Below, piece after piece: positions 16,447 through 35,706 of a stretch of 64,000 nucleotides of DNA (positions within the stretch are counted from its first letter, which is position 1; each line of letters starts with the position of its first letter). The DNA is from Synechococcus sp. RS9909 (GTDB lineage Bacteria; Cyanobacteriota; Cyanobacteriia; PCC-6307; Cyanobiaceae). The notes beneath the pieces were generated by a model. It saw only the letters and a program-made list of their open reading frames with translations, ran no database searches and was not told the origin of the DNA. The translations under genes and the position numbers were made by a program. Where the stretch lies: NCBI RefSeq assembly GCF_014279595.1, contig NZ_CP047943.1, positions 2,416,422 through 2,480,421 of the forward strand, given 5' to 3'.

Positions 16447-16609
16447 GATCCGGTTCTGATCAGAAGAAGCAAGGAAAGATCGCCTGTGATCAAGCTCACA
16501 GGCCAGCGAGACAAGCATCAACAAGCGGCACCGCAATCGCAGAGATCTTGGCTTCATCGGCAGCAGATGGCTCTGCGTCACCGCTCCTCACTCCCAACCA
16601 CACACTCCC

Positions 16610-16858: not shown

Positions 16859-16881
16859 TTGACAACAAACATTTTTGTCAA
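16859..16881 (+). promoter_or_regulatory. TTGACAA/TTGTCAA inverted repeat, possible operator or promoter element
   Basis: TTGACAA (16859-16865) and TTGTCAA (16875-16881) form a perfect 7-base inverted repeat with a 9-base spacer, in an AT-rich stretch 59 bases upstream of the start at 16940. TTGACA also matches a consensus -35 box, though no convincing -10 lies at the right distance. A second GTCAAA copy follows at 16889-16894. Confidence 0.35.
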
Positions 16882-16939
16882 ACACCGGTCAAAACGAACT
16901 CACTCACTAGCTTCCAAAAACCAACGAAAAGCAAACGCC

Positions 16940-18655
16940 ATGTCTCTGCTCAACCAGGCCCGTACAGCAACCAGCGCTATCACGGCCACCGCACTGATTG
17001 CCGCCGCCAGCCTGCAAGCCCCCTCAGCCTCCGCCAACAACGGAGTGAACTGCGAAAACGGACGCTCCCTCGGCCAGTTTTTGATCAAGTCAAAGCTGAA
17101 TGACCGCTATGTGAGCGGCGGCCATCACAACAATGCCCTGAAAGCCAAACTCCTTGACCAACCAGCCCCAGGAAGTGAAGGCGTCTTCGAACTCTTTGAT
17201 GTCAGCGACCTTCCTGGCGCCGCCAGAAACACGTTTGCCCTGCGCAGCGTAAAAAAACCCAATGAGTGGTGGCGCGTAAAGAACAACAATGAAACCGTGC
17301 TGCTCGACTCCTACCAATGCAAGTCAAACCGGGAAAGTACCACTTTCATCGCAACGGGACTAGGCGGGCAGATGGCACTGCAATCCCGCAAAAATAACAA
17401 GTGGCTCAAGGTCAACAATGATGACAGGCTGAAAGCCTCCGTCGACAATCCTAACGGACGCGATAAAAGCATCTTTTTATTCAGCCAACTCAATCAACCT
17501 GCGCCACCCAACCCTCAGCCACAACCTGACCCCCAACCCGAGCAGCCTGTCGACCTCAACGGCTGGTGGCGCGGCAATGACAACAGGCTCTTTAACATCA
17601 GCGTTAATGGCAGCAATGTCACCATCAAGGGCTTCCAAAGCTCAGGACAACCGCTGAACATCTCCACTGGGATTGTGAATGATGCCCTGATCAGTGGAAA
17701 CTGGAACAACTACTGTTATGGAGCACGGGGTTCGTTTGCATTCAGCCTCCGCAACGGAGCACTTGTCAAAGTCGGTGGCAACCTGTCAACCCAAACCCTG
17801 ATTCGCATCAACACCCCCGCCAACGTCAATCTCTCAGCCCAACCGAGCTGCGGCACACCCCAACCACCTCAAGACCAGGCACCCCCGAACCTGAATGGCT
17901 GGTGGAAAGGCAATAACAGTGGTTATTACAACATCCTCCAAACCCAGGAAATCCCAGGACAGAACAACTTCCGAATGCGCGGCTACACGAATTCCGGACA
18001 ACTTCTGAACACCTTGATTGGACGGACCAGGGGCAACAGAATCACCGGCCGGTGGACCAACGCCTGTGATCAGCGAACCGGCAACATCACACTGGAAGTC
18101 CGCAATGGGGAGTTGGTGAAGGTCAGCGGATCAGCCACCGCGAACACGCGCTGGTCAACCACTAACAACCCGCCCCGCACCCTTCGCAACAACTGCCCTC
18201 AGGGCAATCCTGAACCAAGCACTCAGGCGAGCAAACAGGTACTCAGCCTCACGAAAACGGTTTACATTGTTGATCACGATAGCCTCTCAAGAAACGAAAC
18301 CGGACAACGCAAGTTGTCTAAAACGCTGCAACTTGAGCGGCCGGAAAGAAACGGCACACGCTTCAGCGCTTTCTTCCCATCCTCCAACAAAACCCGCTTT
18401 TGTGTTGATAATGAGGTGAGATCCGACGACTGGGACAAGGTTTGGATTGACAGCAATGGCAATGCCAACCTTGGTGTCGAAGTGAAGCTCTACGAGGGAA
18501 CCAGCTGCAGAGGTCGATTGATCGGCACTTATGTGTACCGCAAGATCCTGACCGTTGCCCCGGGGCAGACCGATCGGTATGAAGTTCCCCTCCCCACCAA
18601 TGAAGGCAGCTCGGTGCGGGTGACCTACACCCTCTCCAACCGCACCGCACGCTGA
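16940..18655 (+). CDS. Exported multidomain protein with two copies of an unrecognised domain
   Basis: No family could be named for this 571-residue protein. A signal peptide covers about residues 1-33 (ending APSASA). Residues 41-183 look like a beta-trefoil-type fold (FLIKSKLNDRYVSG, ALRSVKKPNEWWRVKN and MALQSRKNNKWLKVNN are repeated strands). A Pro-rich linker (186-204) leads to two homologous units. Unit 1 (205-305) opens DLNGWWRGNDNRLFNI and ends RNGALVKVGG; unit 2 (318-420) opens NLNGWWKGNNSGYYNI and ends RNGELVKVSG. A distinct C-terminal domain follows (435-571). Paired cysteines in each unit suit an exported protein. Rich in Asn and AT-richer than neighbours, it may be transferred. 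A role in surface or carbohydrate binding is only a guess. Confidence 0.8.
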   Translation: MSLLNQARTATSAITATALIAAASLQAPSASANNGVNCENGRSLGQFLIKSKLNDRYVSGGHHNNALKAKLLDQPAPGSEGVFELFDVSDLPGAARNTFALRSVKKPNEWWRVKNNNETVLLDSYQCKSNRESTTFIATGLGGQMALQSRKNNKWLKVNNDDRLKASVDNPNGRDKSIFLFSQLNQPAPPNPQPQPDPQPEQPVDLNGWWRGNDNRLFNISVNGSNVTIKGFQSSGQPLNISTGIVNDALISGNWNNYCYGARGSFAFSLRNGALVKVGGNLSTQTLIRINTPANVNLSAQPSCGTPQPPQDQAPPNLNGWWKGNNSGYYNILQTQEIPGQNNFRMRGYTNSGQLLNTLIGRTRGNRITGRWTNACDQRTGNITLEVRNGELVKVSGSATANTRWSTTNNPPRTLRNNCPQGNPEPSTQASKQVLSLTKTVYIVDHDSLSRNETGQRKLSKTLQLERPERNGTRFSAFFPSSNKTRFCVDNEVRSDDWDKVWIDSNGNANLGVEVKLYEGTSCRGRLIGTYVYRKILTVAPGQTDRYEVPLPTNEGSSVRVTYTLSNRTAR

Positions 18656-25127: not shown

Positions 25128-25132
25128 TCGCG

Positions 25133-26602
25133 ATGGCCCTTCTGCTCAGCCTTTTTGCCATCGGATCTCTCCTTGGCCTTCAACGCGTGTGCCGGACTCG
25201 AAATCTCACACCGCCGCCGCTGCGTTTGCCATTGATTGCGGCCATTGCGATTCCGGTGCTCACGTTGATGGTGGCAATTCTGGAGCAGAGCAGGCTCGCT
25301 CTGCTGACCCAGAGCCTGAAAACCGCCATCAGTTTATTGTGGATTTACAGCATCATTCGGTTGCTCAGCTGGGGCTCACTGCAACTGCCGTCCGAGCTGG
25401 GCTGGTGGAAACCCACCGCCAAAATTCTCCGGGATCTTCTCACCCTGGCGATCGCCACTTCAATCACCCTGATCGTGATTCACCGTGACTTCCAGGTGAA
25501 CCTGGTGGGCCTGGCCGCCACCTCAGCCGTGCTCACGGCCGTGATTGGTCTGGCCGCCCAGGAAACCCTGAAAAACCTTTTTGCCGGCATTTCTCTACAG
25601 GTGGATTCTCCTTTTGAAGAAGGCGACTGGATTGATCTTGGTTTCACCCGAGGGGTGGTGACCTCGCTTCGCTTGATGACCACACGCATCCATACCCTGG
25701 AGGGTTCCTTGACCGTGATCCCCAACAGCCGCATCGCCGTGGAGAGTCTGCGGCGCTTTAAACCAGGCGATCCAGTGGGTCAGATTGTGGAGGTCGGTCT
25801 TGACTACAGCCTGCCTCCCAGGCAAGCGATCAATCTTCTTCAGACCATCGTTCAACGCAATCGCAAAGTTCTCAAGGAACCGACTCCCAAAGTGTGGCTC
25901 GACGCCTTTGCCGACAGCTCAATCAACTATCGCCTGCTCACCTGGCAGAACTCGGCGCTGGAGCAACTTCAGCTGAAAAGTGATCTTCTCGAGCAGATCT
26001 GGTACGCCCTGCAACGCATCGGCCAATCGATTCCTTTCCCGATCCGAGACATTCGCTCAGAACCTTCCCCGGCCCTACTGCCATCAGACACTGTCAGCGA
26101 GGAAGCGAAACAACAACTTCTGGCCAGCCTGGAGATCTTCTCCCATCTCACTGCCGATCAACTGCAACGACTGGCCGCGCAAGGCCGCTGCCAAAGTTTT
26201 GCTCCAGGAGAAGTGGTGGTGAGGGAAGGCGAACGAGGTCACAGCCTGTTTGTGATCGTGAGTGGAAGCCTGGATGTGCTGCAGGGGGAAGGTGAAGGCC
26301 AGGCCCACCGAATTGCGAGCCTCACAACAAGCGACGTCTTTGGAGAGATGGCTCTCTGCACAGGCGAACCTCGCGCGGCCACGGTGATCTGCAACGACGA
26401 GTGCGTTCTCCTGGAAATCGAACGACGCCATCTCATCCCCCTGATGGAGGAGCATCCAGAAATCCTTGAAACGATCGGCACCTTGATGGCGACGCGGCGC
26501 AAGGAACTGCGCACCCTCTCCCAGCGACGATCGGAAACCCGTCGTCGGGCCCTGATTGGTCGCATGCAGCGATTGTTCAATCTCGCCAGCGACACCCCAT
26601 GA
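25133..26602 (+). CDS. MscS-family channel with C-terminal cyclic-nucleotide-binding domain
   Basis: The 489-residue membrane protein has four or five hydrophobic helices in the first 150 residues (for example PLIAAIAIPVLTLMVAIL and DLLTLAIATSITLIVI). A pore helix with the MscS-like VLTAVIGLAAQETLKNLFAG and the beta domain (SPFEEGDWIDLG, TVIPNSRI) follow. Residues about 335-450 form a cyclic-nucleotide-binding domain. Its phosphate cassette FGEMALCTGEPRAATV (403-418) closely matches that of protein kinase A, with the conserved Gly-Glu and Arg. This is a bacterial cyclic-nucleotide-gated channel layout. It overlaps the adenylate cyclase gene at ATGA, so the signal is probably made by its neighbour. 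Ion specificity is unknown. Confidence 0.9.
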   Translation: MALLLSLFAIGSLLGLQRVCRTRNLTPPPLRLPLIAAIAIPVLTLMVAILEQSRLALLTQSLKTAISLLWIYSIIRLLSWGSLQLPSELGWWKPTAKILRDLLTLAIATSITLIVIHRDFQVNLVGLAATSAVLTAVIGLAAQETLKNLFAGISLQVDSPFEEGDWIDLGFTRGVVTSLRLMTTRIHTLEGSLTVIPNSRIAVESLRRFKPGDPVGQIVEVGLDYSLPPRQAINLLQTIVQRNRKVLKEPTPKVWLDAFADSSINYRLLTWQNSALEQLQLKSDLLEQIWYALQRIGQSIPFPIRDIRSEPSPALLPSDTVSEEAKQQLLASLEIFSHLTADQLQRLAAQGRCQSFAPGEVVVREGERGHSLFVIVSGSLDVLQGEGEGQAHRIASLTTSDVFGEMALCTGEPRAATVICNDECVLLEIERRHLIPLMEEHPEILETIGTLMATRRKELRTLSQRRSETRRRALIGRMQRLFNLASDTP

Positions 26603-28494
26603 GCTGGAAGCGCTGGCTTCTGCCTTACGTCGCGGCCAGCGCACTGCTGGTGGGTTTCCAGGCATCACCAGCTGCAGAAACGCTCAATCTGCTGCTCTAC
26701 GACCTGGTCGCCAGCCTGCGAGAAACGCAGCACTCCCCTGACGATGGTGCCATCACCGTGGTGGGAATCGACGAAGCCGATCTCAAGGCCTTCAAGTGGC
26801 CCATCCCCGATCGCCACCTCTGCGGCGCCATCCAACGGCTTGAGACCCTTGGCGCCAGCGCAATCGGGCTCGACCTCTACCGCGATCCAATCGGAACCGA
26901 CTCCGCGACCTGCCTGAGCACACTCATTCAGACCAACCCGCGGCTCATCTCCATCCACAACATGGCCGATGCGATTCCTGCGATTCCCGGCACGCCACCG
27001 CGCCAGCAGGCTTTCAATGATCTGGTGGTGGACAGCGATCGCGTCGTGCGACGCGATCTCGTGCATGTGGGCGGACAGAGCGAAGCGGTCCGCTCCCTTC
27101 CCCTGAGGTTGCTGGAAACCGCCAGGGGCAATCCCAACCTCCATCGGCAGCTGGAGGCCTTACCCGCTGAGATCTGGTTGCAACCCCAGTCCGGCGGTTA
27201 CCAACGGCTCGATGCCTCGGGCTATCAAACGATGCTGCCCGTGCACCCTCCCGGCCGCTTCCCGATCGTCTCACTCCGAGCTTTGCTGTCCGGTCGCGTT
27301 GACGCCTCCAGCATCCAGGACCGGATCGTTCTGATCGGCAGCACCGCTCCCTCCCTCAAGGATCAGTTCGAGATTCCCCAGAGTCGCCTGGATCAGGGCG
27401 AACGTTTTCTCGCGTTACCGGGTGTGGAGCTGCATGCGCAGCGCCTCGCCTCTCTCCAGGCCCTGCTTCGGGATGGTCAGGCTCCGATCCGCACTGCCTC
27501 TGCCCTGCAGCGTCACCTCCTTCTGGCGGTCATGCTTCTGCTGGGAATCGCCATTGCCGAACGACCACACCGGATCCGTCGCAGCAGCCTCCTGCTCGGC
27601 CTGAGTGCACTGGCTCTGTTCGGCACGAGCGTTCTCTTGCTGTTGGAGGGCGTCTGGATCGGCATTGCCCTGCCCCTCAGTGGGCTGATCCTCTTCGGCA
27701 GCACCGGCATTCTGCGGCGAGGGGCGATCAGCCAGCGGCATCAACAGGAGATGGCTCGCCTGCTCGGGCAGGCCACATCGCCAGCTGTGGCCCAACAGCT
27801 CTGGGAGCAACGGGCTGACCTGATTCAGGACGGCCGCTTCGCCGGTCGTGAACAACCGGTGACGATCCTGTTCACCGACACCTGCCATTTCACCCGGGTT
27901 TCGGAGCAACTCAGCCCAGCCGCGTTGATGGACTGGCTCAATGCGGGAATGGCCATCAGCGTGGACGCCGTCACCAGCCGCGGGGGCATGGTCAACAAAT
28001 TCACAGGTGATGGCATGCTGGCCGTGTTTGGCGCACCGATCTCTGCCGGCCTGGAACGCGATGCCTCCCAGGCCCTGGAGGCCGCCAGGGCCATTCAGAC
28101 GGGGATCGCCAGGCTGAATCGGGATCTGCAAGCCCGTGGGGCCTGGCCGTTAAAGCTACGCATCGGCATCCATTCGGGACTGGTTCTCACCGGGTCCCTG
28201 GGCAGCCGCTCACGCCTGGAGTATGCCGTGATCGGCGACACCGTGAACTGCGCCTCACGCCTGGAAAGCCTGGACAAGGATCGCCATCAGGGATGGGTGC
28301 GCGTTCTGATATCCGCCGAAAGCCTCAGCCTGGCAGGAGTGAATCCGAAGGATGACGCTGTCATCGACTGGGGTGAGGTCCACGTGAAAGGCCGCACAGA
28401 ACCACTGAGGGTTTTCGAGTGGCGGGATCAGGTGAACGTGGAAACCGCCATCAACGACACACCACAGGGATCATCTCCGGCCACTGAGAACTGA
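26599..28494 (+). CDS. CHASE2-domain class III adenylate cyclase
   Basis: The 631-residue membrane cyclase has an N-terminal hydrophobic anchor, an extracytoplasmic CHASE2 sensor (about 25-295, with VVGIDEADL, GASAIGLDLY and DRIVLIGSTAPSLKD), and three transmembrane helices (about 306-320, 330-349, 351-368). The class III catalytic domain (about 418-600) follows. Metal aspartates are Asp427 in FTDTCHF and Asp471 in NKFTGDG. Lys467 and Asp547 fit the adenine-selecting pair; Asn550 and Arg554 in GDTVNCASR stabilise the transition state. All catalytic positions are kept, so an active cAMP-forming enzyme is expected. It is translationally coupled to the channel gene upstream. Confidence 0.94.
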   Translation: MSWKRWLLPYVAASALLVGFQASPAAETLNLLLYDLVASLRETQHSPDDGAITVVGIDEADLKAFKWPIPDRHLCGAIQRLETLGASAIGLDLYRDPIGTDSATCLSTLIQTNPRLISIHNMADAIPAIPGTPPRQQAFNDLVVDSDRVVRRDLVHVGGQSEAVRSLPLRLLETARGNPNLHRQLEALPAEIWLQPQSGGYQRLDASGYQTMLPVHPPGRFPIVSLRALLSGRVDASSIQDRIVLIGSTAPSLKDQFEIPQSRLDQGERFLALPGVELHAQRLASLQALLRDGQAPIRTASALQRHLLLAVMLLLGIAIAERPHRIRRSSLLLGLSALALFGTSVLLLLEGVWIGIALPLSGLILFGSTGILRRGAISQRHQQEMARLLGQATSPAVAQQLWEQRADLIQDGRFAGREQPVTILFTDTCHFTRVSEQLSPAALMDWLNAGMAISVDAVTSRGGMVNKFTGDGMLAVFGAPISAGLERDASQALEAARAIQTGIARLNRDLQARGAWPLKLRIGIHSGLVLTGSLGSRSRLEYAVIGDTVNCASRLESLDKDRHQGWVRVLISAESLSLAGVNPKDDAVIDWGEVHVKGRTEPLRVFEWRDQVNVETAINDTPQGSSPATEN

Positions 28495-29071
28495 TCAGAT
28501 CCTCGAGCCCGAATGCAGCGGCAAGGGGCTGCAAAGGAATGGAGCTGCCACAGTTGGCCTGGAGAGCCTCCAGCTGCGGGCTCAGCATGGCTTCACCAGA
28601 AACCGACTCTTTGAGCAACAGACTTTTAGCCGGGGGCGCCTCGACCCCAAGAAAGCCGAATTCATCGGCCGCGGGTGCATCAGCGCATTGATACGACGAT
28701 TCCCACACCAAGGGAAAGGCAACTGTGGCTGGAACGGAGAAAAGAACAAGTCTGGGACCTCCTCCCGTTTCCATTGTGCGGCTGAAAACCGCCGCATCCT
28801 GCTGGCGCAACGTCAGCTGCAGAGGCCTGGGGTCGCTCGTGGGCCCCTCCAACCAGGCGATCAATCGTGTCGCTCCGGGGGTGTACACACTCGATTCGGG
28901 AACCAGATGGATGATCTGGCGGGCAGCACATTCCCCTCGTGTGCCGCCACCGATCCGTCGACCGGGAAAAGCATTGCGCGACTGCGCCTGCACTGAAACG
29001 GCAGCCAAGGCTGTCAACAGCCATGCCAGGGCGAGCATGCCCAACACACTGGGGCGATGAGAACGGATCAC
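28451..29071 (-). CDS. DUF928-like exported protein
   Basis: This is a 206-residue exported protein if the GTG at 29071 is used, giving a positively charged n-region (IRSHRPSVLG) before the hydrophobic LALAWLLTALAAVSVQA; an ATG at 29038 is the alternative. After the signal peptide come GRRIGGGTRGECAARQIIHLVPES and a beta-rich region, which fit DUF928, a cyanobacterial family often near CHAT and CHASE2 genes. Cysteines in GECAAR, YQCADA, ANCGSS and VVCR could pair. It follows the CHAT exoprotein on the same strand and overlaps the convergent cyclase end by 44 bases. Its role is unknown. Confidence 0.65.
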   Translation of the reverse strand: MIRSHRPSVLGMLALAWLLTALAAVSVQAQSRNAFPGRRIGGGTRGECAARQIIHLVPESSVYTPGATRLIAWLEGPTSDPRPLQLTLRQQDAAVFSRTMETGGGPRLVLFSVPATVAFPLVWESSYQCADAPAADEFGFLGVEAPPAKSLLLKESVSGEAMLSPQLEALQANCGSSIPLQPLAAAFGLEDLISSQWPEMIPVVCR

Positions 29072-29195
29072 AACCGGGCAGCAAACAACGACTGCAGGGT
29101 GGCGCCCTTCCACACCCACCTGCATTGATCCCGGTCACACCCTCGTGTGCGTTGCGTCAATCGCTGAACAGCCATGGTCAGAGCCCTCATCAGCG

Positions 29196-32100
29196 TCACC
29201 AGGGGGAACCGATCAGCTCGATGCCAGCCCAGAAAAAGGGATTCTCCATGCCCCCGGCAACGCGACGTCGCTGCGCCGCGTCCAGATCACGCAGCAAGGG
29301 TTCGCCCATCGCGCCGATCACCCGATCACCCTGCAGTTGAACCTGCCCTTGCGCAAACAATTGCCGGGTGCGCTGAAGCGCCTCGGCCTTGGGAACTCCC
29401 TGCTCCAGGAAGCGATAAAACTGCACGAAAAATGCCGATGTCACCACATCATCGACATACCAGAGCGTACCGACGGCACTGCGGGCTCCGGCCTGAAGCG
29501 CCAGACCGGCAAAACCCAGTTCGCTGTCTGGATCTCCGAGCAACGTGCGACACGCACTGAGCACCACCAGATCCAGAGGGGCCTCGCTGCGCTGGCGACG
29601 CAGACGCGCGAATGCTGCCATCGACATCGGCCCGGCCCCGGTGTGCAAAACGGAGCGGGATGGCCCACCCGGGCGGAAGTCGGCATGCGTGGCCACGTGC
29701 ACCCGGCCGTAACGCGGATCGCTGGCCAGCGCGATCAGCGTTGAGGGAGTGAAGGCGCTGTTGAGGTAACGATCCGTGCTGACCGCATCCTGAATGTTGC
29801 TGAGTTCCTGAGGCACCAGGGGCAACGGTGCAAGGCCCTCGAATTCGGAAGCCCCCATGGCCAGAAGACCGCTGGAGCGTGTTGCAGCATTGAGATCCGT
29901 GAGTGCCAGAGAAGGGGTCAGACCGAAGGCATAACGCGTACCGAAATAGGTTGCTCCATCGCTGAGAGCCGCGAAGGGCACGGCCTGGAGTCCCTGGTCC
30001 GCAGCGATAAGCAGGGTGGTGATGCCCTGATCGCGCAATCCCTGCTGGATGGGCTCGATCAACAGCTGATGCAGTTGTCGGGATGCCGAACGGGGATCGC
30101 TGACCTCGAGTGACTCCTGACGGGACAGCTGGCGATACAACGCCTTCAACAGCGCAGCAAACCGTTCACGCGACACCGCGACGCGGCGAGAGACCACCTC
30201 CCCTGAAGCGGGGACCAGGGTGAGATCGAGAAAGCTTTCGTTCTGGGCTGTGAAACGGACCTGGAGCACGGCTGGCTTCACACCATCTCTCGCCTGTGCC
30301 TGCTGCTGAACCTGCTGAAGCGTCGTCTGGATCTGGGTAAGAGAAGGGGTTTCAGGCACGGTTCCAGCGAGCCCGTCCGAAAGGCCCAGGGCAGCCACAG
30401 TGCGCTGGGTCGCCTCCTGGTCAGCCCCACGCAATTGATCCACCGCCTCATCGGCAGAGAGCGCCACCACCGTCGGAGCCTCCGATGACGGAACGCGTGA
30501 AGCCTCTGCCGCATCCGAACCCCCCTGACCCAGGTCAACAACGAGTGCCGTGGTTTGTGGAGCGGTCTGCGAGGCCAAGGAAGCTGCTCCCAACGAACTC
30601 TCGGGATCGAGAGCATCCTGCGTCGCTGCCAGCTGCAGTGCAGGCTGGAGCGGCGGCGCCTCAGCCACCGCATCAAGAGCGACAACGGCCTCACGATCCT
30701 CCGCATCAGTGCTGGTGGCCCTTGGAATGGGTATCGGTTCGGGTGTCGGCTCCGGATCAGGTGTGGGCTCAGGGCCCGGATCAGGCTCCGTGCAGAGGTT
30801 GGAGGTGCCAGAACCCGAACATGTGGCCGAGGTGGGTGAAGAGGAGAGCACATCGAGTACTCCGGCTTCAACCAAAGTCTGGCCGCTGTAGATGATGGCC
30901 GCTGATGAAGCAAAACGCAGGGTGCCATCCCCCTGTTTGATGAAATCGCCACGGCCACTGATCGGCGCATCCCAGATCAGCGTGGCAGCTGCATCGTTGA
31001 CACTGATCCCGCCGCCACCGCTGCCGAGTTCCAACGCAACACCTGTCACCGTTTCACTCGCATCGCGGCGCAACAATGAGCCGCCAGAGAGAGCAATCGT
31101 GATCGGATTGCCGCCATCGATCACCACACTGCCAACAGGCTGATCCAGCCAGAGAGTGCCACCACCAGTGGCAGCCAAACGCCTGAGGAACAGGGTGTCT
31201 TGGAATCGGATGTCACCACTTCCGCTCTGCGTGAAGTCGCCGTAGCCAGTTGGCGTCTGGCCATCACCCAGATTGATCGCAGCGGAACTGGTTAGAGCAC
31301 CATCACCGGTCGCATTGAGATTGGACGCGAAAGCACTGGCAGCGGGATCCACCGTCACGGCATTCCCACTAATAGGGCTCAGGATCAGGCGATCCTGTCG
31401 CAGATCCAGTGAGGATGTTCCGTTCAATGTGAGCGTGCTTGAGAGCGTGTTCACGCCAGACCAATTCCTCAGAGTTCCGCCCTTGAGCATGATCGGCTCC
31501 CCCACATTCAGCCCGCCACTGAGTTCGAGAGCAGCACCGGATTCAACAGTGGTGGAGGCAGCAGCAGATCCCAGGGCATTGGCATCCAGCAGCCGCAGCG
31601 CTCCTGCCTCCACGGTGGCAGCTCCGGTCCAGCCACTGTTATTTCCAGAAAGAATCAAACGACCGTTCCCGACCTTAAAGAGATCACCGTTACCGCTGAG
31701 CGTGGCGGCGAAGGCAGGCGCTGATGCCCCAGGGGTGCCGATGGTGCTATCACCTGTTGAGATTTTCAGGGGCCCGTTCAAGGCAAGCGTTGCTGCCGCA
31801 GCTCCTTCAACAAAACCCGCACCGGCATTCAATGTCAGCCCGCCACTGCCGGTGGTGATGTTGGAATTCAACTTGATGTAGCCGGAAGCGTCGAGCACGA
31901 GGCGGCCAGTCGACGACGAATAATCCAGAGGCGCTCCCGCCTGCCACGTGATGTTGCCCCCTTCAGAGGTGGTGCCTGGCCCTGTTGCAATCCGCACATT
32001 TGTTGAAGTCCCCAACGCCGTGTCGAGATCATCAACATCGATCAGTGATGGTGACGACGTGGACTCAAAAAGACGCCCGTTCGGATCAACTGGATCTGTG

Positions 32101-33200
32101 ACGTCAAACGTATTTCCTGTGGTCGTGCTGATGGTGATGTTGTAGGGATCCAATAGCCACTCACCCACAACACCGCCAACGGCGCCCACATCCAGCCGCT
32201 CCGGTTTCGCCAGCAGAAATGCTCCAGAGGTCTCCACCCGACCACCGTTGCCACCCAAGGGTCCACCCCGTGCCAGCAGGGTTCCTTCGACCACCGTTCC
32301 GCCGGAGCTGTTGTTCAGATCACTCCAGATCACCACGGTGCCCCCATCGCCCTGGCCGGTGGAAGACGCATCCACGAGCGAACCTGGCTGGACCCAGGTC
32401 TGCGCGGCCTGACGCACGGTCGGGTCACTGTTCTGCCAACTACCACCCACCTGCACCAGGCCGCCGTCGCGACTGCCGGTGGCCAAAAGGGCCGAACCGG
32501 CCCCAACGCGCACCTGATCTGCGGTGAGCGTGAGCGTGCCACCGTCGCCGCTGGAATTGCTCGCAGATAGCCGACTGGACTCGACATCAATCCGGCCCCC
32601 GGGAGCATCCACAAGCAACGACTCCTCCACATCAATGCTGATGCCTTCCATGCGGATCCAAGGCCGGCGATCCTCATCGAGGACGCCACGGAGCCCCAGC
32701 TGTCCCGGCAGGGGGTCACCATGCAACGCCGTAAGGGCAGAGGCCGGGGAACGCAACACATCAAACACTCCGCCAGGAAAGTGGAGTTGGCTGGCCGTGC
32801 TCAGGGTGAGCTGGGGGACCTGCAGGAAGCCTGCGCCGGGCATCAACTGGATCCCCCCCGGCGAGAGCAGAAACAGATGGGCTGGCGAGGTGAGCGCCAC
32901 CGCTTTATCGATGAAGCTTCCCTCCGACGCCGTGACACCCAGCACGAGATTGCGAATGCCATCGCTCTGAATCTCCACCGACTGGATCGCTCCGCGGGTA
33001 TCAAACTGACGCAGGCGATGAAACCGATTCGTGCCGGCATCCTGGCCGCCACCGATCCTGCAGATACCGCTGTTGCAGCTGCCTCCCAGGGCACCATTGA
33101 CGCGACTGCCCAGGGAGGGATCAGCCGTGACCTGCGCACGCACAGCAGAACCCAGCCCCGAAACAACGAGCAGAAGCGACAGAACAGACGAGGCTTTCAT
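29196..33200 (-). CDS. Two-partner-secretion exoprotein (TpsA) with C-terminal CHAT domain
   Basis: This 1334-residue protein has a signal peptide (1-22) and a haemagglutination-type TPS secretion domain (about 25-280, with NLVLGVTASEG and LFLLSPGGIQLMPGAGF in place of the usual NPNGI). A beta-helical stalk with autotransporter-type repeats follows (GDLFKVGNGRLILSGNNSGW, GDFIKQGDGTLRF). Then come a Pro/Glu/Asp linker (TEPDPGPEPTPDPEPTPEP) and a C-terminal CHAT domain. The caspase-like dyad is kept: His1172 in VHVATHADF and Cys1217 in VVLSACRT. CHAT domains are clan CD peptidases, so a surface or secreted protease is plausible. The divergent TpsB gene is next door. The ATG at 33200 follows a weaker in-frame TTG. 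Confidence 0.92.
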   Translation of the reverse strand: MKASSVLSLLLVVSGLGSAVRAQVTADPSLGSRVNGALGGSCNSGICRIGGGQDAGTNRFHRLRQFDTRGAIQSVEIQSDGIRNLVLGVTASEGSFIDKAVALTSPAHLFLLSPGGIQLMPGAGFLQVPQLTLSTASQLHFPGGVFDVLRSPASALTALHGDPLPGQLGLRGVLDEDRRPWIRMEGISIDVEESLLVDAPGGRIDVESSRLSASNSSGDGGTLTLTADQVRVGAGSALLATGSRDGGLVQVGGSWQNSDPTVRQAAQTWVQPGSLVDASSTGQGDGGTVVIWSDLNNSSGGTVVEGTLLARGGPLGGNGGRVETSGAFLLAKPERLDVGAVGGVVGEWLLDPYNITISTTTGNTFDVTDPVDPNGRLFESTSSPSLIDVDDLDTALGTSTNVRIATGPGTTSEGGNITWQAGAPLDYSSSTGRLVLDASGYIKLNSNITTGSGGLTLNAGAGFVEGAAAATLALNGPLKISTGDSTIGTPGASAPAFAATLSGNGDLFKVGNGRLILSGNNSGWTGAATVEAGALRLLDANALGSAAASTTVESGAALELSGGLNVGEPIMLKGGTLRNWSGVNTLSSTLTLNGTSSLDLRQDRLILSPISGNAVTVDPAASAFASNLNATGDGALTSSAAINLGDGQTPTGYGDFTQSGSGDIRFQDTLFLRRLAATGGGTLWLDQPVGSVVIDGGNPITIALSGGSLLRRDASETVTGVALELGSGGGGISVNDAAATLIWDAPISGRGDFIKQGDGTLRFASSAAIIYSGQTLVEAGVLDVLSSSPTSATCSGSGTSNLCTEPDPGPEPTPDPEPTPEPIPIPRATSTDAEDREAVVALDAVAEAPPLQPALQLAATQDALDPESSLGAASLASQTAPQTTALVVDLGQGGSDAAEASRVPSSEAPTVVALSADEAVDQLRGADQEATQRTVAALGLSDGLAGTVPETPSLTQIQTTLQQVQQQAQARDGVKPAVLQVRFTAQNESFLDLTLVPASGEVVSRRVAVSRERFAALLKALYRQLSRQESLEVSDPRSASRQLHQLLIEPIQQGLRDQGITTLLIAADQGLQAVPFAALSDGATYFGTRYAFGLTPSLALTDLNAATRSSGLLAMGASEFEGLAPLPLVPQELSNIQDAVSTDRYLNSAFTPSTLIALASDPRYGRVHVATHADFRPGGPSRSVLHTGAGPMSMAAFARLRRQRSEAPLDLVVLSACRTLLGDPDSELGFAGLALQAGARSAVGTLWYVDDVVTSAFFVQFYRFLEQGVPKAEALQRTRQLFAQGQVQLQGDRVIGAMGEPLLRDLDAAQRRRVAGGMENPFFWAGIELIGSPW

Positions 33201-33311
33201 CAAGGCTGGGCGCCGACCATCGAGAAACTCAGACAGCCAAGAGGCACATCAATTTAGGCAGGATTCGCATCGATCTCTAAGGTTCGGCGGCGCCAGGCCA
33301 AACCCATCGCG
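33201..33311. promoter_or_regulatory. Divergent promoter region between tpsA-CHAT and tpsB
   Basis: The 111-base spacer must drive both genes. A near-symmetric pair TTTAGG (33253-33258) and CTCTAAGG (33275-33282) lies in its middle. It could supply a weak -35/-10 pair in each direction or an operator. No strong consensus promoter is visible. Confidence 0.35.
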
Positions 33312-34988
33312 ATGCTGTTCCTGCTGGCGCAACTGGTGTCTCCGCCGCTGCAACCCGGCCCAGCCCGCATTCCTGCACCCGCAACCGTCGAACAGGAACC
33401 GCAACAAGACACGGATCCGTTGCAGCTCTCTCCGGAGAGCGCGCCCTCGCCACGTCAACCGGATCGATTGCCGCGCCCCAAGCAGTCACAGCCACCCTGG
33501 ACTCCCGCTGTTGAGGGAGCAACGCCTTACACCGCCGAGGAACTCAGCGCGATTCTCAGTAGCTGTGATCACATCAACCCCGAACGCAGCCTGCAGTTGT
33601 GCTCCGAAGCGCTCACAGCTCGGCTGCAACAAGACGGGTATGTGAACTCCAGGGTGTTTGTGGAGCGGGATCCACCTCCCGGACGACTGGTGGTGGTGCT
33701 GGGGCGCCTGGTGGAGATCCGTGTGGATGCCGAGACACCCGGTCTGGGCCAACGGGTGCGACAGGCGCTCCGCAACCTTCTGGGAGAACCCCTGCAGCTG
33801 CCTGTCCTCCAGACCAGACTGCGTCAGCTGCGCCAGCGCCAGATTGTTGGCAGCGTGTCTGGGAGCCTGGGAAAGCTGGGCAGCGATCCCACCCAGGCCG
33901 TGCTTCAACTCTCGGTCACGGCGCCACGCCATCCCTGGAGGGGCGACATCAGCCTGCGCAATGACGGCAATGCCGGCAGCGGCGAATGGCGCGCCCTTGC
34001 CGTTCTGCAGAAACGCGAGCTACTGCTCGAGGGTGATGTGCTTCAGCTTTACGGAGAAGGGAATACCGACAGCGATCCGGAATTCGGCACCGGAATCGGC
34101 TCGCTCAGCTACACCCTGCCTCTCGGCGCCAAAGTCAGCCTGACCGGCTCATTCGGAGCAAGCCGACGTAACTTTGTAGAAGCCAGCGGAATTGCCCATG
34201 GCCTCAGCTTTCGTCAGTACCAGGGCTTGGGGCAACTCCAATGGACCTTCTCCGAGAGCGACAGCCAGAGCTGGTATGCCTTCGCCGGCCTGAGTGCCAA
34301 TCACAACAACAGCTACCTGAATGATGCGTCCTTTCCCCTGATTATTGGCGGCGGCCTGGATGGCGACCTAACCACAGGGTATCTCCGCTTCGGGATCGGC
34401 AGCAGCGGCCAAAGTGGCTCCTGGGCCTGGTCAGGGCAGCTCTATGGCCTGCAGGGAATCGCGGGGTTCAGCTCCCAGCAAGAGTTACAGAATCTTGGCT
34501 TCTTCGGCATCGACCCCGGCGAATCGAGGGCACTGGGGGGGATCATCAGCAACAGCTGGGCCTTGTCACCCAACCTGCAATGGTCGCTGCGTGCCGCTGG
34601 CCAGGTTGCATTCCATGAGCTCACCAACGACATGGGGTTCTCCTTAGGCAGTGACACGGGACTCCGTGGCCTTCCTGGCACCCTGATCAGCGGTGACAGC
34701 GGCTGGCTGGGCAGCACAGAACTGGCCTGGACCTTCTGGCAGCAACAGCAGAACGCCTTGCAGCTGGTGCCTTTCCTCGGAATGGGTGGAATCAGCACTC
34801 AACGCGATGCGATCACGTTCTCCGACACCATTGGTTCAGGTGGCCTGCTGCTGCGCTGGCTCAACGGTCGTCACTGGAGCGTGGAGCTGGGATGGATCGA
34901 TCAGTTCCAGGACGATGACAACACTGGCTTCTGGAATGACTGGCTCCTCGGCAGCGGCCTCTACGGGAAACTCCGTTACCGCTTTTGA
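33312..34988 (+). CDS. TpsB outer-membrane transporter (ShlB/FhaC/HecB family)
   Basis: The 558-residue protein is the Omp85-type pore of a two-partner secretion system. A short hydrophobic N-terminus and a Pro-rich segment (about 15-65) precede POTRA-like domains (TAEELSAILSSCDHINPERS, QDGYVNSRVFVERDPPPGRLVVVLG). A 16-strand barrel-type region follows, with the loop-6 motif GLRGLPG at 450-456 and a terminal Phe, both typical. Its substrate is almost certainly the divergent CHAT exoprotein. Codon use matches its neighbours. Confidence 0.93.
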   Translation: MLFLLAQLVSPPLQPGPARIPAPATVEQEPQQDTDPLQLSPESAPSPRQPDRLPRPKQSQPPWTPAVEGATPYTAEELSAILSSCDHINPERSLQLCSEALTARLQQDGYVNSRVFVERDPPPGRLVVVLGRLVEIRVDAETPGLGQRVRQALRNLLGEPLQLPVLQTRLRQLRQRQIVGSVSGSLGKLGSDPTQAVLQLSVTAPRHPWRGDISLRNDGNAGSGEWRALAVLQKRELLLEGDVLQLYGEGNTDSDPEFGTGIGSLSYTLPLGAKVSLTGSFGASRRNFVEASGIAHGLSFRQYQGLGQLQWTFSESDSQSWYAFAGLSANHNNSYLNDASFPLIIGGGLDGDLTTGYLRFGIGSSGQSGSWAWSGQLYGLQGIAGFSSQQELQNLGFFGIDPGESRALGGIISNSWALSPNLQWSLRAAGQVAFHELTNDMGFSLGSDTGLRGLPGTLISGDSGWLGSTELAWTFWQQQQNALQLVPFLGMGGISTQRDAITFSDTIGSGGLLLRWLNGRHWSVELGWIDQFQDDDNTGFWNDWLLGSGLYGKLRYRF

Positions 34989-35019
34989 ACAACTGCTCGC
35001 CCCAACCGGCATCCCGCTC

Positions 35020-35706
35020 TCACAGCAGCAGACCACGCTTACGCAGCGGTGCGAGGTCACTGAGTTGCAGGCCGCCGTTCGCCTCGCTCACCACACCCCT
35101 GCTGCGTAACTTGCTGAGCGTGCGCGAGGCCGTTTCCCTGGCCAGGCCAGCCAGAAGGGCAATCTCCTTCTGGGCCAGAGGCGGGATCGGCGCTTCCACA
35201 TCAGCCTGGCCGGAACTCTTCCGTGCCAGGTAGGCGAGGGCATCGAGCAGGCGGGTGGTGGCGTCGGCGCTCTGCAGGGCAAAGCGTTGATTCAGATCAC
35301 GCAGGCGTCCCGCCTCGAGGCGGGCCAGGGCCAGGGCGAAGGCGGGCTGCTGCTGCAACAGCGCAGCGAAGGGAGCCGAGCGCAGCTTCACCAGACGCAG
35401 GGGAGTCAGAGCCACCACATCCGCCGAACGCGATGCGCCATCCAGAGCCGCCATCTCACCGAACACATCTCCCGGACCCAGGAGCGACATGATCACCTCA
35501 TCACCGTCGGCGGTGGTGGTGCGCACCTTGGCCAGACCGTCGCGAATCAGAAACAGCGACTCGCCCCAGTCCTGTTCCATCACAATCACCTGATCGATCT
35601 GGTGATCGCTCTGGCGATGACGATCGAGCAAGCGATCGAGATCGTCGCCGTTGAGATCTGCAAAGAGGGTGATCGCCGCGAGGGCCTCACGCGTGAGGGC
35701 AGACAT
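35020..35706 (-). CDS. Crp/Fnr-family regulator, probably cAMP-responsive
   Basis: This 228-residue regulator has an N-terminal cyclic-nucleotide-binding fold (about 10-125), a dimerisation helix (about 125-155) and a winged helix at about 170-215 (LAQKEIALLAGLARETASRTLSKLRSRGVV). The binding pocket keeps Gly-Glu (83-84) and Arg-Ser-Ala (93-95) in FGEMAALDGASRSADV, matching the residues that hold the cAMP phosphate in E. coli Crp. No Fe-S or NtcA-type features are seen. It converges on tpsB, 31 bases away, and lies 6.5 kb from the adenylate cyclase gene. Its targets cannot be deduced from the window. Confidence 0.85.
   Translation of the reverse strand: MSALTREALAAITLFADLNGDDLDRLLDRHRQSDHQIDQVIVMEQDWGESLFLIRDGLAKVRTTTADGDEVIMSLLGPGDVFGEMAALDGASRSADVVALTPLRLVKLRSAPFAALLQQQPAFALALARLEAGRLRDLNQRFALQSADATTRLLDALAYLARKSSGQADVEAPIPPLAQKEIALLAGLARETASRTLSKLRSRGVVSEANGGLQLSDLAPLRKRGLLL

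What the first reader, a model, noticed from the sequence alone, without database searches (positions are those of the whole stretch)
28451..34988. Two-partner secretion system exporting a caspase-like CHAT protein, with a DUF928 companion
One protein joins a TPS secretion domain, autotransporter-type beta repeats, a Pro-rich linker and a CHAT domain with an intact His1172/Cys1217 pair. Its TpsB is divergent and adjacent, and a DUF928 exported protein follows it. CHAT peptidases are best known inside cells, for example in CRISPR-linked craspase and gasdermin activation. A surface-displayed version in a free-living picocyanobacterium has no defined target and could act in cell-cell contact, defence or self-processing.
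Basis: partly seen in the sequence, partly recalled or inferred. Interest (0 to 1): 0.75.

Follow-up and report, generated by a model that had tools for sequence, protein, structure and literature searches.

The report
Exported caspase-like protein in cAMP-signalling cassette
A marine-type picocyanobacterium carries a removable five-gene block whose central product is a protein built for export through the outer membrane with a separase/caspase-like protease domain at its end, next to a cAMP-making sensor; such proteins are common in cyanobacteria and the block matches one briefly reported in 2020, but what it cuts, if anything, is unknown.

Summary
TpsA-CHAT (29196-33200, -) has a signal peptide, a weak TPS domain, autotransporter (PATR) repeats, a variable linker and a C-terminal CHAT domain with H1172/C1217 (ATG numbering). 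TpsB is divergent and adjacent. The next gene is a distant DUF928 relative that fails Pfam's DUF928 model. The predicted CHAT structure (pLDDT 93) matches Csx29 (Z 28.7), separase (24.3), gingipain (19.5) and caspases (12.8); His and Cys are invariant in 61 relatives. A close relative lacks exactly window 25130-35009. DUF928-like, CHASE2-cyclase and CHAT co-occur almost perfectly in 151 family genomes. TPS-CHAT fusions are widespread in cyanobacteria, and DUF928 genes sit beside CHASE2 genes about 30 times more often than chance. Doré et al. 2020 (PMC7522525) describe a matching Synechococcus module (Syn_GI122). Best reading: a surface-displayed, normally latent cysteine protease in an accessory envelope-sensing/cAMP cassette. 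Export, activity and target are inferred, not shown. New member of a known kind; moderate interest.

The parts
25130..35009 (.). Cassette segment absent as one clean block from close relative G028 (speA joined straight to the crp-type gene)
   Evidence: blastn: G028 matches window up to 25129 and again from 35010 with adjacent coordinates 7028/7029 in L152
25124..26602 (+). MscS mechanosensitive channel with C-terminal cyclic-nucleotide-binding domain
   Evidence: Pfam MS_channel_2nd/3rd and cNMP_binding over cut-off; retained without the other four genes in G001 and G011
26599..28494 (+). CHASE2 extracytoplasmic sensor fused to a class III nucleotide cyclase
   Evidence: CHASE2 E 6e-45, Guanylate_cyc E 2e-19; motifs FTDTCHFT, VNKFTGDG and GDTVNCASRLE keep the metal-binding Asp pair, the Lys and the Asn/Arg expected of a catalytic class III cyclase (residue roles from general knowledge)
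28451..29125 (-). Exported DUF928-like protein; convergent, overlaps the 3' end of the CHASE2-cyclase gene by 44 bases
   Evidence: N-terminal hydrophobic helix and beta-rich core in the model; no Pfam match; hhalign to true DUF928 proteins 94.8%, E 5e-8
29196..33200 (-). TpsA-CHAT, 1334 aa from the ATG at 33200 (1335 from TTG 33203)
33132..33200 (-). Signal peptide of TpsA-CHAT (MKASSVLSLLLVVSGLGSAVRAQ)
   Evidence: read directly from the sequence; no signal-peptide program was available
32094..33134 (-). TPS secretion domain, about ORF residues 24-370
   Evidence: PF05860 26.5 bits (cut-off 33.5); 21 of 30 members match, best 1.8e-46; 71% mean identity to orthologues
30804..32093 (-). Beta-helix-type passenger with PATR repeats, ORF residues 371-800, ending in a conserved Cys pair (795, 804)
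   Evidence: PATR E 2e-9, TIGR02601 E 7e-11; 55% mean identity
30492..30803 (-). Pro/Glu-rich, length-variable linker, ORF residues 801-904
   Evidence: 25-30% mean identity among orthologues
29199..30491 (-). CHAT module, ORF residues 905-1335 (N-terminal half plus protease half)
   Evidence: PF12770 E 5e-52; model pLDDT 93, pTM 0.93; Csx29 Z 28.7, separase 24.3, gingipain 19.5; 75% mean identity in the protease half
29685..29687 (-). Codon of catalytic-type His1172 (ORF 1173)
   Evidence: invariant in 39 and 61 aligned relatives
29550..29552 (-). Codon of catalytic-type Cys1217 (ORF 1218)
   Evidence: invariant in 39 and 61 aligned relatives
33204..33311 (.). 108-base divergent promoter region between tpsA and tpsB; no CRP-type palindrome
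33312..34988 (+). TpsB outer-membrane transporter (ShlB/FhaC type)
   Evidence: ShlB E 1.5e-17; next to TpsA-CHAT in the genus orthologues and aligned with distant TpsBs
35020..35706 (-). Crp-type regulator; flanking gene, also present where the cassette is absent
   Evidence: cNMP_binding and HTH_Crp_2 over cut-off; present in 21 of 60 relatives including G028 without the cassette

Best explanation
The locus is an accessory envelope-sensing cassette. TpsB exports TpsA-CHAT across the outer membrane; the beta-helix passenger and the flexible linker hold a separase/gingipain-like cysteine protease domain at or outside the cell surface. By analogy with Csx29 and separase, the protease is probably latent until a partner or substrate engages it. 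The DUF928-like protein stays in the periplasm and most likely serves the CHASE2 sensor as ligand or co-receptor (DUF928 genes sit by CHASE2 genes much more often than by CHAT genes). The CHASE2-cyclase turns the envelope state into cAMP, read by the cNMP-gated MscS channel and perhaps by the neighbouring Crp-type regulator. Shown here: gene content, domains, predicted fold, conserved dyad, co-inheritance, gain/loss as a block. Inferred: export, protease activity, latency, the DUF928-CHASE2 link, cAMP as the signal, any substrate.
For: CHAT, PATR, ShlB and sub-threshold TPS matches. CHAT model pLDDT 93; Csx29 Z 28.7 over 334 residues, separase 24.3, the secreted protease gingipain 19.5. His/Cys invariant in 61 relatives; the protease half is the most conserved region (75% against 25-30% in the linker). 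Clean 9,880-base presence/absence block. Among 151 family genomes DUF928-like occurs in 32, CHASE2-cyclase in the same 32 plus one weak match, CHAT of this type in 30 of those and one other; Fisher p below 1e-26, uncorrected for relatedness. In distant cyanobacteria DUF928 lies within 5 kb of CHASE2 in 71 of 139 cases against 2.3 expected, and of listed CHAT genes in 16 of 139 against 2.1.
Against: No experiment shows export or proteolysis. The TPS match of this protein alone is below Pfam's cut-off. TpsB shows no clear signal peptide from its ATG (MLFLLAQLVSPPLQ). No CRP-type site lies between tpsA and tpsB. MscS-cNMP and the crp-type gene persist in genomes without the other genes, so their link is looser. 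In distant cyanobacteria CHASE2 and CHAT genes are only weakly linked to each other (6 against 2.1 within 5 kb).
Confidence: 0.4

Rival explanations
1. Self-processing: the CHAT domain cuts its own linker or passenger after export, releasing the protease or the passenger, as other secreted proteins do with built-in proteases.
For: Protease at the C-terminus behind a Pro-rich, length-variable linker and a conserved Cys pair closing the passenger.
Against: No conserved cleavage-like motif: the linker is the least conserved part, 25-30% identity. A passenger can exist without CHAT (paralogue in L024), so CHAT is not needed to mature it.
Confidence: 0.2
2. Non-proteolytic CHAT: the fold is kept as a protein-binding or signalling head on an adhesin-like stalk.
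For: Clan CD folds with lost activity exist; no substrate gene stands out in the cassette.
Against: His and Cys are invariant in all 61 members aligned and the protease half is the best conserved part.
Confidence: 0.15
3. Anti-phage or cell-death cassette: cyclase plus cNMP-gated channel as a Pycsar-like pair, CHAT as a death protease.
For: PADLOC: the cyclase matches PycC at E 3e-24 and the channel's cNMP domain matches Pycsar TIR effectors at E 5e-16; the block is patchy and lost as a unit.
Against: Those matches cover only the general class III cyclase and cNMP-binding domains; the cyclase carries a CHASE2 sensor; CHAT is on an export protein; the best BovA (caspase-like) match is only E 5e-4; no phage record holds the CHAT domain.
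Confidence: 0.1
4. Surface protease acting on other cells or on proteinaceous food (competition, grazer deterrence or nutrient release) with cAMP genes as mere regulators.
For: Secreted architecture; gingipain-like fold match.
Against: No toxin-immunity pair; tight tie to DUF928 and CHASE2 rather than to effector or immunity genes.
Confidence: 0.15

Closest known systems
Marine Synechococcus genomic-island module Syn_GI122 (Doré et al. 2020, PMC7522525)
   Same: [quoted passage not shown] every item is present here.
   Different: The paper's gene lists were not readable here, so identity rests on the description. It does not mention TpsB, the TPS domain, CHASE2 or DUF928 in the main text.
Cyanobacterial TPS-CHAT proteins (filamentous haemagglutinin N-terminus + CHAT)
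   Same: Same order: TPS at the N-terminus, repeats, CHAT at the C-terminus, in Nostoc, Oscillatoria, Moorena, Okeania, Calothrix and others.
   Different: In filamentous forms TpsB is usually not adjacent, copies are many per genome, and the companion is a true Pfam DUF928.
Csx29/TPR-CHAT of Craspase
   Same: Closest solved fold, Z 28.7 over 334 residues, 3.2 A; His/Cys dyad (H585/C627 in Csx29, PMC9729208).
   Different: Intracellular, has TPR repeats and binds Cas7-11; here there is no TPR, an export signal, and 15% identity.
Separase and gingipain R/K (clan CD)
   Same: Two-lobed caspase-like fold, Z 24.3 and 19.5; gingipains are secreted proteases of this clan.
   Different: Different export route and domain make-up; no sequence match in the PDB.
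HetF of Anabaena (PMC8406250)
   Same: Cyanobacterial CHAT-domain protein.
   Different: CHAT at residues 1-555 with TM and TPR, located at the septum; no TPS export.

Membership tests
CHAT domain (PF12770) | Match above Pfam's curated cut-off | tested here: met
   177.5 bits against a cut-off of 24
CHAT domain (PF12770) | Clan CD His and Cys present and conserved | tested here: met
   H1172 and C1217 invariant in 39 and 61 relatives
CHAT domain (PF12770) | His and Cys placed as a dyad in space; proteolysis | not testable with these tools
   Model coordinates are not released; the fold matches active relatives
Two-partner secretion TpsA | N-terminal TPS domain after a signal peptide | tested here: inconclusive
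   PF05860 E 7e-6 but under cut-off (26.5 against 33.5); 21 of 30 members match, best 1.8e-46
Two-partner secretion TpsB | ShlB/FhaC barrel above cut-off, with POTRA | tested here: met
   ShlB 64.5 bits against 22.7; POTRA_2 17.1 against 24, so only the barrel passes
DUF928 (PF06051) | Match above Pfam's curated cut-off | tested here: not met
   No match for the window protein or its 14 orthologues; remote relation by hhalign 94.8%, E 5e-8
Craspase Csx29 | N-terminal TPR region with the CHAT domain | tested here: not met
   Only CHAT, PATR and TPS-type matches in the whole protein
Pycsar | PycC cyclase paired with a cNMP-binding effector of the known types | tested here: inconclusive
   PycC E 2.6e-24 and PycTIR E 5e-16 match only the shared catalytic and cNMP-binding domains
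Syn_GI122 module | Secreted CHAT + adenylate cyclase + CRP and/or cAMP-regulated MscS in one variable island | tested here: met
   All four gene types adjacent; variable block shown by G028; the paper's own gene list was not checked

The most novel reading that the evidence does not exclude
A surface-to-cytoplasm proteolytic circuit: the exported CHAT protease cuts or frees an envelope partner (the DUF928-like protein or a surface ligand), the CHASE2-cyclase reads that event, and cAMP opens the MscS channel, so the cell answers contact or envelope damage through a caspase-like protease outside the cell.
Probability: 0.12. Interest if true: 0.8.

Novelty: new member of a known kind. Interest (0 to 1): 0.42.

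Why it matters
CHAT proteases are studied mainly as intracellular enzymes (Craspase, gasdermin-linked systems, HetF). A separase-like protease exported by two-partner secretion and tied to a CHASE2-cAMP sensor would extend this clan to the surface biology of some of the most abundant photosynthetic cells. The natural presence/absence pair (window genome against G028, otherwise nearly identical around the site) makes the function directly testable. The strong DUF928-CHASE2 gene linkage also gives a first working hypothesis for DUF928, a family without a known role. Against this, the cassette type is already in the literature in one sentence, and nothing here shows activity.

Tried and rejected
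DUF928 membership: rejected at Pfam level for the window protein and 14 orthologues, kept as remote homology. Structure of the DUF928-like protein: pLDDT 72.8 and no PDB match below E 0.1, so no fold is claimed. Sequence search of the PDB with the CHAT profile found no relative; only fold comparison did. CRP-box search: no site at the tpsA/tpsB promoter and no excess in the window at 2 mismatches (16 found, 21 expected). Phage records: no CHAT match; plasmids: only distant CHAT proteins, below 60% identity; one annotated plasmid neighbour, Nostoc NIES-3756, had no CHASE2 or DUF928 beside it. A first linkage count for CHAT used a hand-picked CHAT list and is discarded; searches use the full printed list, itself truncated. 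The first DUF928 profile held three sequences read on the wrong strand; the alignment used for the comparison (A4) was corrected. Three literature searches for TPS-CHAT or CHASE2-TPS found nothing; a broader one found Doré et al.. Crp as part of the cassette: rejected, it stays when the cassette is absent.
Full report
What was checked. The long protein carries CHAT (PF12770, E 5e-52) at its C-terminus and PATR repeats (E 2e-9) in the middle, with an autotransporter repeat match from NCBIfam (E 7e-11) and a weak FHA N-terminal match (E 0.015). The N-terminal piece alone reaches only 26.5 bits for the TPS domain against a cut-off of 33.5, but 21 of the 30 family members scanned match it, the best at 1.8e-46. 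The divergent neighbour is a ShlB-type TpsB (E 1.5e-17).

The 'DUF928' protein. It has no Pfam match, nor do its 14 orthologues. A profile of these against true DUF928 proteins gives probability 94.8% and E 5e-8 over 111 columns; shared features are the N-terminal GGGTRGEC...LVP stretch and a W...C region. It is therefore a remote relative and not a Pfam member. Its predicted structure is beta-rich but of moderate confidence (pLDDT 72.8), without a PDB match.

The CHAT domain. An alignment of 61 relatives gave a confident model of ORF residues 905-1335 (pLDDT 93, pTM 0.93). The best solved matches are Csx29/TPR-CHAT (Foldseek E 4e-13; Z 28.7, 334 residues, 3.2 A), separase (Z 24.3), gingipain (Z 19.5) and caspases (Z about 12.8). 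A shared fold does not show function. His and Cys are invariant in two alignments of 39 and 61 sequences. Among close orthologues the protease half is the most conserved region (75%), the TPS domain 71%, the passenger 55% and the linker 25-30%. This argues for a kept catalytic role but does not prove it. The distance between His and Cys could not be measured because coordinates are not released. In Csx29 the dyad is about 7 A apart when latent and about 3 A when active (PMC9729208), so even a measured static distance would need care.

The surroundings. Directly upstream lie an MscS channel with a cNMP-binding domain and a CHASE2 sensor fused to a class III cyclase that keeps its catalytic motifs. 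In at least nine genomes of the genus the order speA - MscS-cNMP - CHASE2-cyclase - DUF928-like - TpsA-CHAT - TpsB - crp-type gene, or the part covered by the contig, is conserved. G028, whose SpeA is 99.4% identical, lacks exactly window 25130-35009: its sequence runs from the base matching 25129 straight to the base matching 35010. G026 and G007 also have speA next to the crp-type gene; G001 and G011 keep only the MscS gene between them. G030 carries a decayed copy with a split CHASE2 gene and stops in CHAT. The shared site in many species suggests repeated loss of an old block, though gain by recombination in the flanks is not excluded; no tree was made.

Co-inheritance. In 151 genomes of the family, DUF928-like is found in 32, the CHASE2-cyclase in the same 32 and one weak extra, and CHAT of this type in 30 of those plus one. 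The three discordant genomes on the CHAT side are 73-78% complete. Fisher p values are below 1e-26, not corrected for relatedness.

Wider family. TPS-CHAT fusions are common in filamentous cyanobacteria, with many copies per genome. In 20 such genomes, 71 of 139 DUF928 genes lie within 5 kb of a CHASE2 gene (2.3 expected) and 16 within 5 kb of a listed CHAT gene (2.1 expected). CHASE2 and CHAT are only weakly linked directly (6 against 2.1). DUF928 thus looks first of all like a CHASE2 partner. A WD40 survey had noticed a CHASE2-DUF928 cluster in one Nostoc (PMC5587647).

Literature. Doré et al. [quoted passage not shown] By description this is the same kind of block. I could not read their gene table. 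No paper in the library was found that describes TPS-linked CHAT export or tests its activity.

Mechanism. I commit to a surface-displayed, normally latent cysteine protease within an envelope-sensing cAMP cassette (0.4). Export rests on domain content and the linked TpsB; protease activity on fold and dyad; the DUF928-CHASE2 link on gene linkage; cAMP rests on cyclase motifs. Each is an inference. Self-processing, a non-catalytic head, a defence role and an outward-directed protease are rivals in falling or similar order (0.2, 0.15, 0.1, 0.15).

Verdict. It is a new member of a known kind with a useful natural knockout pair; interest 0.42.

Noticed in passing
own genome G000:C1:905000-924900 (L040), outside the window: A match to TpsA residues 118-576 lies in an open frame reported as 20,437 aa, with a ShlB-type TpsB gene close by (L040:18698-19858, E 9.5e-20): a giant two-partner-secretion protein.
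   Followed up: partly
window 16485-16500: Perfect CRP-type palindrome TGTGATCAAGCTCACA (0.03 expected for the specific pattern), upstream of an exported 598-aa ORF without Pfam match at 16859-18655.
   Followed up: partly
L024:7-3897 (G008) and window TpsA residues 795/804: Tandem TpsA paralogue without CHAT that keeps the same passenger end, including the conserved Cys pair before the linker; CHAT looks like an exchangeable C-terminal domain.
   Followed up: partly
L033 (G030): Decayed cassette: CHASE2 gene split, CHAT with stops or frameshift, DUF928-like gene still open.
   Followed up: partly
L075 (Synechococcus AG-670-F04): TpsA-like ORF and CHAT domain are separate ORFs, the CHAT ORF with its own hydrophobic N-terminus, plus another secreted-looking CHAT protein on the other strand.
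   Followed up: no
window 33312-33360: TpsB orthologues all begin MLxLLAQLVxPP with a very short hydrophobic start and no upstream ATG/GTG/TTG start in frame here; the true start or signal peptide of TpsB is unclear.
   Followed up: partly
window 28451-28494: Convergent CHASE2-cyclase and DUF928-like genes overlap at their 3' ends by 44 bases, and short overlaps recur in relatives.
   Followed up: no
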